Part shown: piece after piece, positions 30,514 to 63,998 of the stretch
Layout: the number at the start of each line of letters is the position of its first letter
Position numbering within the stretch: position 1 is the stretch's first letter
Assembly: GCF_000787815.1 (NCBI RefSeq)
Contig: NZ_BBPO01000022.1
Span: 3,907-67,906, forward strand
Source: Streptacidiphilus neutrinimicus
Lineage (GTDB): Bacteria > Actinomycetota > Actinomycetes > Streptomycetales > Streptomycetaceae
DNA: 64,000 bases
Reading direction: 5' to 3'
Position numbers and translations under genes: made by a program
Notes under the pieces: model-generated
Databases searched by the model: none
What the model was told of the DNA's origin: nothing
The model's input: only the letters and a program-made list of their open reading frames with translations

Positions 30514-30932
30514 CAGCTCTCACCTGCCTCGCGCCGGACGATCCGGCACTTCATCGGGAGCTTGTGAGCCGCGCGCGTCAGCGCCTCACGAGCCATCTTC
30601 TCGTTCGGGTAGGACAGCTCGAACATGACCCGACCCGGGTGCACGTTGGCGATCCACCACTCCGGCGAACCCTTACCGGAACCCATGCGGGTCTCGGCAG
30701 GCTTCTTCGTCAGCGGACGGTCCGGGTAGATGTTGATCCACACCTTGCCGCCACGCTTGATGTGACGCGTGATGGAGATACGAGCGGACTCGATCTGCCG
30801 GTTCGTCACATACGCCGGGGTGACGGCCTGCAGGCCCCACTCGCCGAACGTAACCTCGGTACCGCCCTTGGCCGCACCACGACGCTTGGGGTGGTGCTGC
30901 TTGCGGTGCTTGACCCTGCGAGGGATCAGCAT
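30513..30932 (-). CDS. rplP: 50S ribosomal protein L16 (uL16)
   Basis: This 139-residue protein of the A-site tRNA corridor begins [21 protein letters not shown] and contains [21 protein letters not shown] and the ARRMGSGKG-like [14 protein letters not shown]. It lies 2 bp after rpsC. Confidence 0.98.
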
Positions 30933-57342: not shown

Positions 57343-57452
57343 TTGTCCCTCACCTGATATCCGGGTACCTGTAGGGGCGCTCGCATGTCACGAGGCCCCT
57401 GATTGCACTGCTGACGGTACCGCCTGTCCAAGGTTTCCGACAGAGCGGACAG

Positions 57453-57525
57453 CAGGGCCAGAGGGACTTGAACCCCCAACCGCCGGTTTTGGAGACCGGT
57501 GCTCTACCAATTGAGCTATAGCCCT
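57453..57525 (-). tRNA. tRNA-Trp (anticodon CCA)
   Basis: A 73-nt cloverleaf: acceptor arm AGGGCTA pairs with TGGCCCT (57454-57460), the anticodon arm CCGGT-CTCCAAA-ACCGG places CCA in the anticodon, the T loop contains GTTCAAGTCC and the discriminator is G. CCA is not encoded and must be added enzymatically. The tRNA-Trp-secE-nusG order is conserved. Confidence 0.95.
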
Positions 57526-60174: not shown

Positions 60175-61233
60175 TCAGAGCTCGACGCCCACCATGACGG
60201 GCTCGTTCACCAGGGTCACCCCGAACGCGTCGACGACGCCGCCCTGGACCTCGCGGGCGAGGGCCAGCAGATCGGCGGCGGTGGCGGCGCCGCGGTTGGT
60301 GAGGGCGAGGGTGTGCTTGCCGGAGAGGCGGGCCGGGCCGGCGCCGTAGCCCTTGGTGAAGCCGGCCTTGTCGATCAGCCAGGCCGCGGAGGTCTTCACC
60401 CGGCCCTCCCCCGCCGGGTACGCGGGCGGCTGGGCGTCGGGGCCGAGGCGCTCGGCGACGCGGGCCAGGAAGGCGGCGTGCTCGGCCTCGGTGAGGATCG
60501 GGTTGGTGAAGAACGACCCTGCCGACCAGGTGTCGTGGTCCTCCGGATCGAGCACCATGCCCTTGCCGGAACGGAGCTTCAGCACCGCCTCCCGGGCCGC
60601 GCGCAGGTCCGCGCGCTCGCCCTCGGCGACCCCGAGGGCACGGGCCGTCTCGGCGTACCGGACCGGGCTGGACGCGCCCTCCGCGTCGGTCAGCGCGAAG
60701 GTGACCCGCAGCACGACGTAGCGGTCGGGCTCGGCCTTGAAGCGGCTGTGACGGTAGGCGAAGCCGCACTCGGCGGCGGGGACGGTCACCGTCTCCCCCG
60801 TGCGGCGGTCGTACGCGACGACCTCGGTGATCGTGTCGGCGACCTCCTGGCCGTAGGCGCCGACGTTCTGCACCGGGGTGGCCCCCGCCGAGCCGGGGAT
60901 GCCGGCCAGGAACTCGATCCCCGCGAGCCCGTGGTCCAGGACGGCCCGGTCGACGACCTGCGACCAGACCTCGCCCGCGGCGACGGTGAGGCGAGCCCCG
61001 TCGAGGGCGAAGCCCTCGGTGGCGACGCGCAGGACGGTGCCGGGGAAGCCGGCGTCGCCGATGACCAGGTTGCTGCCGCCGCCGAGAACCAGCAGCGGCT
61101 CGCCCGCCTCGTCGGCGGCCCGCACGACGGCGACGACCTCGTCGTCGGTCGTCGCCGTCACCAGCCGGGCGGCGGGCCCGCCGATCCGGAGCGTGGTCAG
61201 GGGGGCCAGGGGCGCGTCATGGAGTTCCTGCAC
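60175..61233 (-). CDS. murB: UDP-N-acetylenolpyruvoylglucosamine reductase MurB
   Basis: This 352-residue flavoenzyme reduces UDP-GlcNAc-enolpyruvate to UDP-MurNAc. FAD-binding GGGSNLVIGDAGFPG, EFLAGIPGSAGATPVQNVGAYG, the catalytic region SAGSFFTNPIL and the C-terminal NEPVMVGVEL identify it as the type I-like actinobacterial form. GTG 61233 is chosen because TACGCT lies 7 nt upstream (61241-61246, minus strand); a start 13 codons earlier is in frame but unsupported. Substrate for this step derives from GlmS and GlmM, both in the window. Confidence 0.96.
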   Translation of the reverse strand: MQELHDAPLAPLTTLRIGGPAARLVTATTDDEVVAVVRAADEAGEPLLVLGGGSNLVIGDAGFPGTVLRVATEGFALDGARLTVAAGEVWSQVVDRAVLDHGLAGIEFLAGIPGSAGATPVQNVGAYGQEVADTITEVVAYDRRTGETVTVPAAECGFAYRHSRFKAEPDRYVVLRVTFALTDAEGASSPVRYAETARALGVAEGERADLRAAREAVLKLRSGKGMVLDPEDHDTWSAGSFFTNPILTEAEHAAFLARVAERLGPDAQPPAYPAGEGRVKTSAAWLIDKAGFTKGYGAGPARLSGKHTLALTNRGAATAADLLALAREVQGGVVDAFGVTLVNEPVMVGVEL

Positions 61234-61416
61234 GGGGTCTAGCGTACGGGCCACGGGCCGCCTCCCCGGCAACCCACCGGCCCGCCCGGCACACGCCGCG
61301 GCCGCGCGGGCAAACGACCCCGCCCAGCAAGCCGGCCTCCGGCCGGGGCCCTGGGGCCAGACGCACGCTCGCCTGGCGGGGGGCTCCCGGACGGAGGTCG
61401 GAGGGGGTTTGGGTCG

Positions 61417-62868
61417 TCAGGCCACCGGGGCCGGGGTGGGGTCGGCGACGGTGTCGGTGGTTCCCGAGGATTCGCCGGAGGCGACCGGGAGGGACGGGGT
61501 GGTGCGGGAGCGACGCGGGGCGAGGAGGATCGCGACGGTCGCGGCGGCGATGGCCGCGGCGCCGACCCACAGCGCCGGGGTGAGGCCGTCGACGTAGCTC
61601 TGGCCGCTGGCGTAGCTGCCGTGCGCGGTGAAGACCGACGTCAGGACCGCGACGCCGAGCGCGCCGCCGACCTCACGCAGCGCGTTGTTCGCGCCGGAGG
61701 CCACACCCTGCTCCTGCGGCCGGACGGAGCCCATCAGCACGGCCGCGACCGGGCTGAAGAACAGCGCCATGCCGACGCCGGAGATGATCAGCGGCGGCAC
61801 CTGCGAGACGTAGCTCACGTGCGGGGAGACGATCAGCGCGAACCAGGCCAGCCCGAGGGTCTGCAGGGCCAGGCCCATGGCGATGACGACCCGGCCGCCG
61901 ATCCGGTCGACCAGCAGGCCGGCCAGTGGGGCGACGAGCATCGGCATGCCGGTCCAGGGCAGCATCCGCACGCCCGCGGTCATCGGGCTGTACCCCTGCA
62001 CGTTCTGCAGGAACTGGCTGAGCAGGAAGATCGCGCCGAACATGCCGAGCGACATCAGCATCGAGGCCGCGTTGACCGCGGAGAAGGTGCGGATCCTAAA
62101 GAGGCGCAGCGGCAGCAGCGGCGTGGCGGTGCGGGACTCCCAGACGAGGAAGGAGACCAGCAGCGCGGCCCCGACCACCAGCCCGGAGAGGACGGGCCCG
62201 CTGGTCCAGCCGTCGGAGTTGCCGCGGATCAGGCCGTAGACGATGCCGAAGAGACCGGCGCTGGCCAGGGCGGTGCCGACCACGTCGAGTCGGCTGTTGG
62301 GGCCGTGGGACTCGGTCAGCCGCAGACGGGCCAGTGGCAGCAGCGCGAGGCCGATCGGGACGTTCAGCGCGAAGATCCACTGCCAGGAGAGGTGCTCGAC
62401 GACCGTCCCGCCGATCAGCGGGCCGAGCGCCACGGCCATGCCGTTGACCGCTCCCCAGGCGCCGAAGGCGAGCCCGCGCCGGGCGGCGGGGACCGCGGCG
62501 GTGAGCAGGGTGAGGCTGACCGGTGTGAGCAGCGCCGCTCCGACGCCCTGCGCGGCGCGCGCCGCGACCAGCGCGCCGATGTTCGGCGCGAGCGCCGCGG
62601 CGAGCGAGGAGAGCGTGAACAGCGCGAGGCCGACGGTGAAGATCCGCCGTCGCCCGAAGCGGTCGCCGAGGGCCGCGCCGAACATCAGCAGCACGGCGAA
62701 GGTCAGGGTGTAGGCGTTGACGGTCCACTCGAGGTCGGTGATCCCGCCGCCGAGGTGGGCCCGGATGGACGGCAGGGCGGTGGTCACCACGAGATTGTCG
62801 AGGGCGGCCATGAAGCCTGCGGTACTGGTGATGAGGAAGGCCCAGACGGCCGGACTGATCTTGCGCAT
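61417..62868 (-). CDS. MFS multidrug exporter, DHA2 (EmrB/QacA-type, 14 TM)
   Basis: This 483-residue transporter has about 14 membrane helices. WAFLITSTAGFMAALDNLVVTTALPSI at the start, motif A (GAALGDRFGRRRIF), motif C-like GPLIGGTVVEHLSWQWIFALN and the DHA2 length identify the proton-driven drug exporter group. ATG 62868 has GGGGGAC upstream. It is the second gene after a TetR regulator, and a copy of that regulator's likely operator lies 24 bp upstream of the ATG. The exported compound is unknown. Confidence 0.92.
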   Translation of the reverse strand: MRKISPAVWAFLITSTAGFMAALDNLVVTTALPSIRAHLGGGITDLEWTVNAYTLTFAVLLMFGAALGDRFGRRRIFTVGLALFTLSSLAAALAPNIGALVAARAAQGVGAALLTPVSLTLLTAAVPAARRGLAFGAWGAVNGMAVALGPLIGGTVVEHLSWQWIFALNVPIGLALLPLARLRLTESHGPNSRLDVVGTALASAGLFGIVYGLIRGNSDGWTSGPVLSGLVVGAALLVSFLVWESRTATPLLPLRLFRIRTFSAVNAASMLMSLGMFGAIFLLSQFLQNVQGYSPMTAGVRMLPWTGMPMLVAPLAGLLVDRIGGRVVIAMGLALQTLGLAWFALIVSPHVSYVSQVPPLIISGVGMALFFSPVAAVLMGSVRPQEQGVASGANNALREVGGALGVAVLTSVFTAHGSYASGQSYVDGLTPALWVGAAAIAAATVAILLAPRRSRTTPSLPVASGESSGTTDTVADPTPAPVA

Positions 62869-62892
62869 GCTGTCCCCCAGGCGCAGCTTGAA

Positions 62893-62910
62893 AGTAATCA
62901 ATCAATAACT
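62893..62910. promoter_or_regulatory. candidate TetR operator upstream of the MFS gene
   Basis: AGTAATCAATCAATAACT on the plus strand matches 16 of 18 bases of the site in front of the TetR gene (63520-63537, opposite strand). It lies between the TetR stop and the MFS start, 24 bp before the MFS ATG. Confidence 0.6.
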
Positions 62911-62940
62911 TCGGCGGGCAAAAAAACACGCTTCAGCGGG

Positions 62941-63513
62941 TCAGACCACCGGGCAGCCCAGGTAGTCCTTGCCGAAGCCCTGCCAGAGGCGGTGATCCAC
63001 CGGAAAGCCCATGGCGACCAGGTTGTTGATCAGCATCCCGTAGGCGAAGAACTCGGTGACCTCCTCCGGCGTGGCGCCGGACGCCGCGGCCACCGTGTCC
63101 CACAGGTCCGTCCAGAGGGCGCGGACGGCCTCGCCCACCTCGTGATCGCCGGCGGCCTCGGCGGCCGCCGTGGAGACGTACATCTGCAGCTGCATGAGCA
63201 GCCGGGACTTGTCCTCGATCAGCTCGAAGTAGACCTCGGCCATCGCCAGGCGCGCCTCCTCGCCCTGCTTGCCCTCGGCGGCCCGGAGGAAGCTCTGCTT
63301 GATCTCCTCCGTGCAGCGGCGGACAGCGGCCTCGAAGAGCGCCCGCTTGTTCTCGAACAGGCGGAACAGGTAGGGCTGCGACACCCCGACCCGGCGGGCG
63401 ATCGCCGCGGTCGAGGTGCCGTTGTAGCCGTGGGCGGCGAACTCGATCACGGCGGCGCGGATGACGCTCTCGCGTCGCTCCTCCGCGCTCATCCGCATGC
63501 TCGTCTTCGCCAT
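62941..63513 (-). CDS. TetR/AcrR-family repressor of the adjacent MFS exporter
   Basis: This 190-residue regulator has the N-terminal HTH in STAAIARRVGVSQPYLFRLFENK (about residues 34-56) and a C-terminal ligand-binding domain of the TetR_C_11-like type. It is followed within 72 bp by the MFS gene on the same strand. The inverted repeat AGTTAGT-N8-ACTAACT lies 7-28 bp before its ATG, and a related site precedes the MFS gene, so it very likely autoregulates and represses the exporter until its ligand binds. A run of seven T follows its stop without a clear hairpin. Confidence 0.9.
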   Translation of the reverse strand: MAKTSMRMSAEERRESVIRAAVIEFAAHGYNGTSTAAIARRVGVSQPYLFRLFENKRALFEAAVRRCTEEIKQSFLRAAEGKQGEEARLAMAEVYFELIEDKSRLLMQLQMYVSTAAAEAAGDHEVGEAVRALWTDLWDTVAAASGATPEEVTEFFAYGMLINNLVAMGFPVDHRLWQGFGKDYLGCPVV

Positions 63514-63519
63514 GGTTCA

Positions 63520-63541
63520 AAGTTAGTGGTTGATTACTAAC
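63520..63541. promoter_or_regulatory. TetR autoregulatory operator (inverted repeat)
   Basis: AGTTAGT (63520-63526) and ACTAACT (63535-63541) form a perfect 7-bp inverted repeat around GGTTGATT. It lies 6 bp upstream of the TetR start codon, over the expected promoter. Confidence 0.7.
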
Positions 63542-63569
63542 TACGTCAAGAGCCCTCGGGAGAGGGGTC

Positions 63570-63998
63570 TCAGGCCAGCTGGACGACGGCTCGGGACATG
63601 CCGAGCACCTTCTGGCCCGCGCTGGTGGCGACCAGGTCCACGCGGACCCGGCGGTCGTCCAGCTTGGCCGCCACCTTGCCGGTGACCTCGATCACGGCGC
63701 CCGCCTCGTCGTTCGGCACGACGACCGGCTTGGTGAAGCGGACCCCGTACTCGACGACCGCGCCCGGGTCGACCACCCAGTCGGTGACCACGCGGACGGC
63801 CTCGGCCATGGTGAACATGCCGTGTGCGATCACGTCCGGCAGGCCCACGGAAGTGGCGAAGGCCTCGTTCCAGTGGATCGGGTTGAAGTCGCCGGAGGCG
63901 CCCGCGTACTGGACCAGCGTGGCCCGGGTCACCGGGAAGGACTGCGCCGGCAGTTCGGTGCCGACCTCGACCTCGTCGTAGTTGACGATCGCGCTCAT
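63570..63998 (-). CDS. MaoC-like hydratase/dehydratase
   Basis: This 142-residue hot-dog-fold protein has the hydratase 2 catalytic motif in GDFNPIHWNEAFATSVGLPDVIAHGMFTMA (Asp and His near residues 37-42). It starts MSAIVNYDEVEVGTELPAQSF. In actinobacteria such proteins pair with a second MaoC-like subunit, as in mycobacterial HadA/HadB beta-hydroxyacyl dehydratases; the partner would lie just right of the window. The acyl substrate is not identified. Confidence 0.88.
   Translation of the reverse strand: MSAIVNYDEVEVGTELPAQSFPVTRATLVQYAGASGDFNPIHWNEAFATSVGLPDVIAHGMFTMAEAVRVVTDWVVDPGAVVEYGVRFTKPVVVPNDEAGAVIEVTGKVAAKLDDRRVRVDLVATSAGQKVLGMSRAVVQLA

What the first reader, a model, noticed from the sequence alone, without database searches (positions are those of the whole stretch)
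62868..63541. Matched operator pair ties the TetR regulator to itself and to the MFS exporter
The inverted repeat AGTTAGT-N8-ACTAACT before the TetR gene and the sequence at 62893-62910 before the MFS gene share 16 of 18 bases when read on opposite strands. The second site lies inside the operon, 24 bp before the MFS start, so the exporter could be repressed independently of the upstream gene. This gives a concrete, testable regulon prediction for an uncharacterised efflux system.
Basis: partly seen in the sequence, partly recalled or inferred. Interest (0 to 1): 0.5.

Follow-up and report, generated by a model that had tools for sequence, protein, structure and literature searches.

The report
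Twin repressor sites controlling an exporter
A soil actinobacterium carries a repressor gene beside an efflux-pump gene, each with its own copy of what looks like the same DNA switch; related bacteria keep the arrangement, so it is probably a real but ordinary self-limiting pump control whose trigger molecule is unknown.

Summary
The two sites are real and beyond chance: in the 8.4 Mb genome the shared motif matches exactly only here. In 94 orthologous loci the site before tetR is kept in 93, and the site before the exporter in all 92 with the exporter next door; it is missing from both loci without it. In 61 family genomes all 53 matches to a strict consensus lie at this cassette, but 26 genomes, 10 with the regulator, had none, so the search misses sites. 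Both sites sit between a -35-like and a -10-like element; the best explanation is steric repression of two separate promoters. Correction: 'inside the operon' is not shown. A terminator-like hairpin lies between tetR and site 2 in 63 of 92 loci (15.9 expected), though in the window it is weak or undetected. The window's site 2 is an imperfect palindrome. Binding, expression and ligand were not tested. New member of a well-known kind (TetR autorepressor plus DHA2 pump).

The parts
62941..63513 (-). tetR gene, 190 aa TetR-family regulator
   Evidence: ORF; Pfam TetR_N PF00440 53.4 bits, cutoff 24; predicted TetR fold
63521..63542 (.). operator 1, AGTTAGT-N8-ACTAACT
   Evidence: sequence; top matrix score in the window, 30.3 (the matrix includes this site); kept in 93 of 94 ortholog loci
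63544..63549 (-). predicted -35 of the tetR promoter (TTGACG)
   Evidence: sequence; TTGAC in this register in 48 of 94 loci, most others TTGC or TTGA one base closer
63520..63525 (-). predicted -10 of the tetR promoter (TAACTT), overlapping operator 1, 6 nt before the ATG; 18-bp spacer here
   Evidence: TAACTT in 85 of 94 loci; 6 or 7 nt to the start codon in 85 of 94
62926..62941 (-). weak hairpin followed by a T7 run (62920-62926) between tetR and operator 2; terminator-like element that is stronger in many relatives
   Evidence: own scan: weak in the window, 63 of 92 loci positive; the standard terminator scan found none in the window
62916..62921 (-). predicted -35 of the exporter promoter (TTGCCC)
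   Evidence: sequence; G at hexamer position 3 in 86 of 92 loci, TG at positions 2-3 in 60 of 92
62892..62897 (-). predicted -10 of the exporter promoter (TTACTT), overlapping operator 2; 18-bp spacer here
   Evidence: TNACTN in 87 of 92 loci; part of the operator too, so this conservation is not proof of a promoter
   Evidence: sequence; matrix score 22.0 at 62890-62911; within 4 of 17 fixed positions in 92 of 92 loci with the exporter next to tetR
61417..62868 (-). exporter gene, 483 aa DHA2 (EmrB/QacA-type) MFS permease
   Evidence: NCBIfam TIGR00711 311.7 bits, cutoff 230.2; Pfam MFS_1

Best explanation
A TetR-family repressor, probably a dimer, binds operator 1 in its own promoter and operator 2 in the promoter of the adjacent DHA2 exporter. 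Both operators lie in the -35/-10 spacer and overlap the -10, so bound repressor would block RNA polymerase at both genes. A small molecule, probably a substrate of the pump, would release the repressor and raise pump and repressor together, giving a self-limiting response. Shown by sequence: the two sites, their conservation, their position against promoter-like elements, and the restriction of strict matches to this cassette. Inferred: binding, repression, the promoters themselves, ligand release and substrate.
For: Two exact motif matches in the genome. In 94 ortholog loci site 1 is within 3 of 16 fixed positions in 93, site 2 within 4 of 17 in 92 of 92 with the exporter; the best of 30 shuffles per locus has 4-7 and 5-8 mismatches (the consensus was drawn from the same loci, so this is partly circular). 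On loci not used for the matrix, 7 of 7 exporter relatives at 58% identity or more have an operator upstream scoring 24.5 or more, while 14 of 14 exporter paralogs at about 55% or less (two of them look like copies of one) score at most 10.7. 16 of 16 MaoC-murB loci without the cassette have nothing above 8.5. In 61 genomes 53 of 53 strict consensus matches (52 places) lie at the cassette; the reversed control pattern gave 1. In genome G042 tetR with site 1 and an exporter with operators lie on different contigs. Promoter-like elements flank both sites.
Against: No binding or expression data. Operator 2 of the window is degenerate (4 of 17 mismatches to the family consensus, among the 5 worst of 92). 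The strict pattern finds nothing in 26 of 61 genomes, at least 10 of which have the regulator, so further sites elsewhere could be missed. In the genus at up to 2 mismatches, 27 of 57 matches lie away from this cassette against 20 for the reversed control. L125 and L132 keep tetR without an exporter beside it. The -10-like bases are part of the operator, the -35 before the exporter is weak, and the sigma-70-type scan found no promoter in 61200-63800.
Confidence: 0.85

Rival explanations
1. Single operon: in the window tetR and the exporter are transcribed together from the tetR promoter, and site 2 only fine-tunes or blocks passing polymerase.
For: Same strand, 72 bp between the genes, no terminator found in the window by the standard scan, none in the three nearest relatives L041-L043 by my own scan.
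Against: Terminator-like hairpins between the genes in 63 of 92 loci (15.9 expected from shuffles); -35-like and -10-like elements around site 2; an exporter in G042 carries operators with no relative of this tetR in the 16 kb read.
Confidence: 0.25
2. The sites bind another regulator of the cell, not the adjacent TetR.
For: No binding data exist; a matching palindrome alone does not name its protein.
Against: Strict matches occur only at the cassette in 61 genomes; 16 of 16 loci without the cassette lack sites.
Confidence: 0.08
3. The similarity is chance or shared AT-rich promoter sequence.
For: Both sites are AT-rich islands in GC-rich DNA and both contain -10-like sequence.
Against: Only two exact genome matches, conservation through the family, conserved positions outside the promoter-like hexamers such as the left arm.
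Confidence: 0.02

Closest known systems
Streptomyces coelicolor SCO4640/SCO4641
   Same: Listed as TetR regulator and transmembrane efflux protein with adjacent numbers; log2 second/first mycelium -4.3 and -2.5 on solid medium, -0.2 and -0.5 in liquid (PMC3897704, passages seen). SCO4636 is listed as UPF0336 (PMC7042404, passage seen); that UPF0336 is MaoC/HadA-like is recalled. Likely the orthologous pair.
   Different: Orthology is inferred from annotation and numbering; the named sequence was not compared. Three papers in the library name SCO4640 or SCO4641: passages of two were seen (PMC3897704, PMC4848846, both tables), the third (PMC3610822) only as a listing; none of what I saw studies their regulation.
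TetR/tetA and divergent Streptomyces TetR-exporter pairs (ActR/ActA, SCO3367/SCO3366)
   Same: TetR-type regulator with operators beside an MFS exporter; ActR and SCO3367 repress the exporter gene (PMC3511530, passages seen).
   Different: Those pairs are divergent and share one intergenic region; here the genes face the same way and each has its own operator, about 630 bp apart. The operator sequences tabulated there differ from ours.
PqrA/PqrB of S. coelicolor and LmrA/LmrB of Bacillus subtilis
   Same: TetR regulator next to an MFS exporter. Co-expression of pqrB with SCO1568 is stated in PMC3897704 (passage seen); all else is recalled.
   Different: Their layout and operators were not compared here; I recall no second operator directly before the pump.
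QacR/QacA
   Same: The predicted fold aligns with QacR (3br2, Z 14.9, 3.2 A over 166 residues), as with many TetR-family regulators within 1-2 Z units; the exporter is DHA2 class.
   Different: 13% identity over that alignment; best Z is another regulator (2g3b, 16.3). QacR's operator and layout are recalled and differ.

Membership tests
TetR-family regulator | TetR_N DNA-binding domain | tested here: met
   PF00440 53.4 bits, cutoff 24
TetR-family regulator | All-helical TetR fold with N-terminal HTH | tested here: met
   Model mean pLDDT 87.2; the listed PDB neighbours are TetR-type regulators, Z up to 16.3 over 166 residues
TetR-family regulator | Binds a palindromic operator near its own promoter | tested here: inconclusive
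   A conserved palindrome is present; binding was not tested
TetR-family regulator | Ligand-induced release from DNA | not testable with these tools
   Needs purified protein
DHA2 (EmrB/QacA) efflux MFS | Curated subfamily model | tested here: met
   TIGR00711 311.7 bits, cutoff 230.2
DHA2 (EmrB/QacA) efflux MFS | 14 transmembrane segments | not tested
   No topology prediction was run
Named single-function TetR regulators (FasR, BetI, AcrR, TetR, MtrR and others) | Curated score cutoff | tested here: not met
   All 16 families listed are below cutoff, e.g. FasR 51.4 of 330 bits
Named drug exporters (TcmA, LfrA, Lmr(A), QacA/B, OtrB) | Curated score cutoff | tested here: not met
   Below cutoff in the 25 of 62 families shown, e.g. 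TcmA 205.5 of 999 bits
SCO4640/SCO4641 ortholog group | Sequence orthology and synteny with the named S. coelicolor genes | tested here: inconclusive
   Annotation and numbering fit; named sequence not compared

The most novel reading that the evidence does not exclude
A core pump of the Streptomycetaceae, usually sitting between a MaoC-type dehydratase gene and murB, exports an endogenous metabolite made in early growth; its dedicated repressor controls only these two promoters and acts in trans when the genes separate. The operators carry two overlapping dyads 2 bp apart, which could mean an unusual way of loading the repressor, for example two dimers.
Probability: 0.2. Interest if true: 0.5.

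Novelty: new member of a known kind. Interest (0 to 1): 0.3.

Why it matters
It turns a guess about two similar sites into a precise, family-wide prediction: one regulator, two promoters, and no further strict match in 61 genomes. It points to a widespread exporter with no study found in the searches made; the regulator is in 191 of 297 family genomes sampled. It gives ready reporters for finding the substrate. The mechanism itself is textbook.

Tried and rejected
Rejected: chance similarity. No support for a wide regulon: the best window score away from the locus (15.2 at 30725-30746) lies between and within ribosomal-protein-region frames next to the ORF I read as rpsC (named by eye). Solirubrobacterales TetR relatives at about 40% identity (L018-L022) have no site above 7.7 in their loci. 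Little gained: PADLOC, no hits; PDB sequence search, best hit Mce3R 1.7e-13, no close relative; operator strings in papers, 8 papers, all off-topic by title. Searches for precedents or the pair itself: 12 of 12 listed; 20 of 60 listed; 8 of 33; 8 of 8; 8 of 14; 1 of 1; 2 of 2; I saw listings, and opened passages of PMC3897704, PMC4848846, PMC3511530 and PMC7042404 only. The library holds open-licence PubMed Central papers only.

The 94 loci are 14 of the genus, 76 of the family (16 returned and 60 chosen from its printed list) and 4 named Streptomyces (L014-L017); near-duplicates among the last were not checked. 7 of the exporter loci plus L157 repeat genomes used for the matrix and are not counted in the 7 of 7. 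The terminator null used 40 mononucleotide shuffles per locus and a scan of my own. The matrix includes the window's own sites. Against the reading: see the Against line of the best explanation.

Full report
What was claimed.

Operator 1 is at 63521-63542 and operator 2 at 62893-62910; read on opposite strands they share 16 of 18 bases, and 24 bp separate operator 2 from the exporter ATG. In the 8.4 Mb genome the shared motif has exactly two perfect matches, these two; the other four listed have three mismatches (a second pattern, agrees). In the 14 genomes of the genus, searched with up to two mismatches, all 14 have a match at the locus. By my count 30 of the 57 matches lie there; 27 lie elsewhere, against 20 matches for the reversed control, so the rest is near background. 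Two of the 27 lie at paralogous or distant TetR loci (L057, L058).

The genes. The regulator has a TetR_N domain and a predicted TetR fold; the nearest solved sequence is distant. The exporter belongs to the DHA2/EmrB class. Neither reaches the cutoff of a named single-function family among those listed. The neighbours are a MaoC-type dehydratase gene upstream and murB downstream, the usual setting of the cassette in relatives, though not the only one.

Conservation. The regulator is in 14 of 14 genus genomes and in 191 of 297 family genomes at E 1e-40 or better. I compared 94 ortholog loci. Site 1 is within 3 of 16 fixed positions in 93 of 94. Site 2 is within 4 of 17 in all 92 with the exporter next door, and absent in the two without it, L125 and L132. 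The consensus came from these loci, so I also used other data. A matrix built from them found an operator at 24.5 or above in 7 of 7 further exporter relatives (58% identity or more; L155, L156, L158-L162) and nothing above 10.7 in 14 of 14 paralogs (about 55% or less; L163-L176, of which L171 and L175 look identical). 16 of 16 MaoC-murB loci without the cassette had nothing above 8.5. The best scores in 17 chunks of the rest of the window ran from -4.7 to 15.2.

Specificity. A strict consensus pattern with at most one mismatch gave 53 matches (52 places; one palindromic place counts on both strands) in 35 of 61 family genomes, all at this cassette or its parts; the reversed pattern gave one. 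Thirty places were checked by sequence as loci (with L230) and one more, L231; the others lie beside coordinates already known or beside those loci. The pattern is strict: 26 genomes gave nothing, and at least 10 of these have the regulator, so this shows specificity, not completeness.

A natural split. In genome G042 tetR stays between MaoC and murB with site 1 and no exporter, while an exporter copy (65% identity) lies on another contig. Upstream of that copy are a site-2-type operator (24.5) and a weaker site-1-type operator (15.7, close to the highest background score of 15.2) in a similar promoter setting, as if a tetR had been lost between them. The 16 kb read there holds no relative of this TetR better than E 0.046, though a frame that looks TetR-like by eye lies about 1.5 kb upstream. 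This is what control in trans would look like, but the copy could also be an older duplicate with another regulator.

Promoter-like elements. Before tetR, TTGAC stands 18 bp from the -10 in 48 of 94 loci; most others have TTGC or TTGA one base closer. TAACTT is in 85 of 94, and 6 or 7 nt separate it from the start codon in 85 of 94, so the transcript should be leaderless or nearly so. Before the exporter an nTGnCC-like hexamer and TNACTN (87 of 92) stand 18 bp apart in the alignment. Each operator lies in the spacer and overlaps the -10, so the -10 bases are also operator bases. The simplest mechanism is steric exclusion of RNA polymerase. The sigma-70-type scan found no promoter in 61200-63800 at its thresholds.

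Operon or not. My scan for a GC-rich hairpin followed by T found one between tetR and site 2 in 63 of 92 loci, against 15.9 expected from shuffles. In the window it is weak, the three nearest relatives L041-L043 have none, and the standard scan found none. The exporter is probably its own unit in many relatives, while read-through from tetR is possible in the window.

Operator anatomy. Both sites show two overlapping dyads 2 bp apart, with 7.2 and 6.2 (site 1) and 7.1 and 7.0 (site 2) of 11 pairs matched on average; the next-best centres reach 4.5 and 4.8. This may reflect a half-site with an internal repeat or a second bound dimer; it is unresolved.

Known context. By annotation and numbering the S. 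coelicolor pair is probably SCO4640/SCO4641. Both transcripts fall from first to second mycelium on solid medium (log2 -4.3 and -2.5) and change little in liquid (PMC3897704, passages). SCO4640 is also in a table of regulators in a carbon catabolite study (PMC4848846, passage). Three papers in the library name these genes. In PMC3511530, whose passages I saw, Streptomyces TetR regulators were studied with divergent neighbours.

Verdict. Real, conserved, and mechanistically ordinary: most likely a TetR autorepressor with a dedicated second operator for its co-oriented pump. The substrate and ligand are unknown.

Noticed in passing
   Followed up: partly
L055 at 2064-2085 and L057 at 2077-2098: Two paralogous tetR/exporter pairs of the same genus carry the operator only at the end of tetR; in L055 it overlaps the tetR stop codon.
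   Followed up: partly
L058 (G012:C1:3118697-3118714): A TetR relative at about 40% identity has TGTGAGTGGTTGATTACT, similar to the operator core, before its start.
   Followed up: no
   Followed up: partly
Site 1 and site 2 in 94 and 92 loci: Two overlapping dyad centres 2 bp apart in both operators.
   Followed up: partly
G002, G004, G007, G008, G009: A recurrent two-mismatch match of the type TGGTACTGGTTGATGACT, up to five times in one genome, away from this locus; probably an unrelated repeated sequence.
   Followed up: no
window 57452-57525: tRNA-Trp gene (minus strand), the only tRNA found in the window.
   Followed up: no
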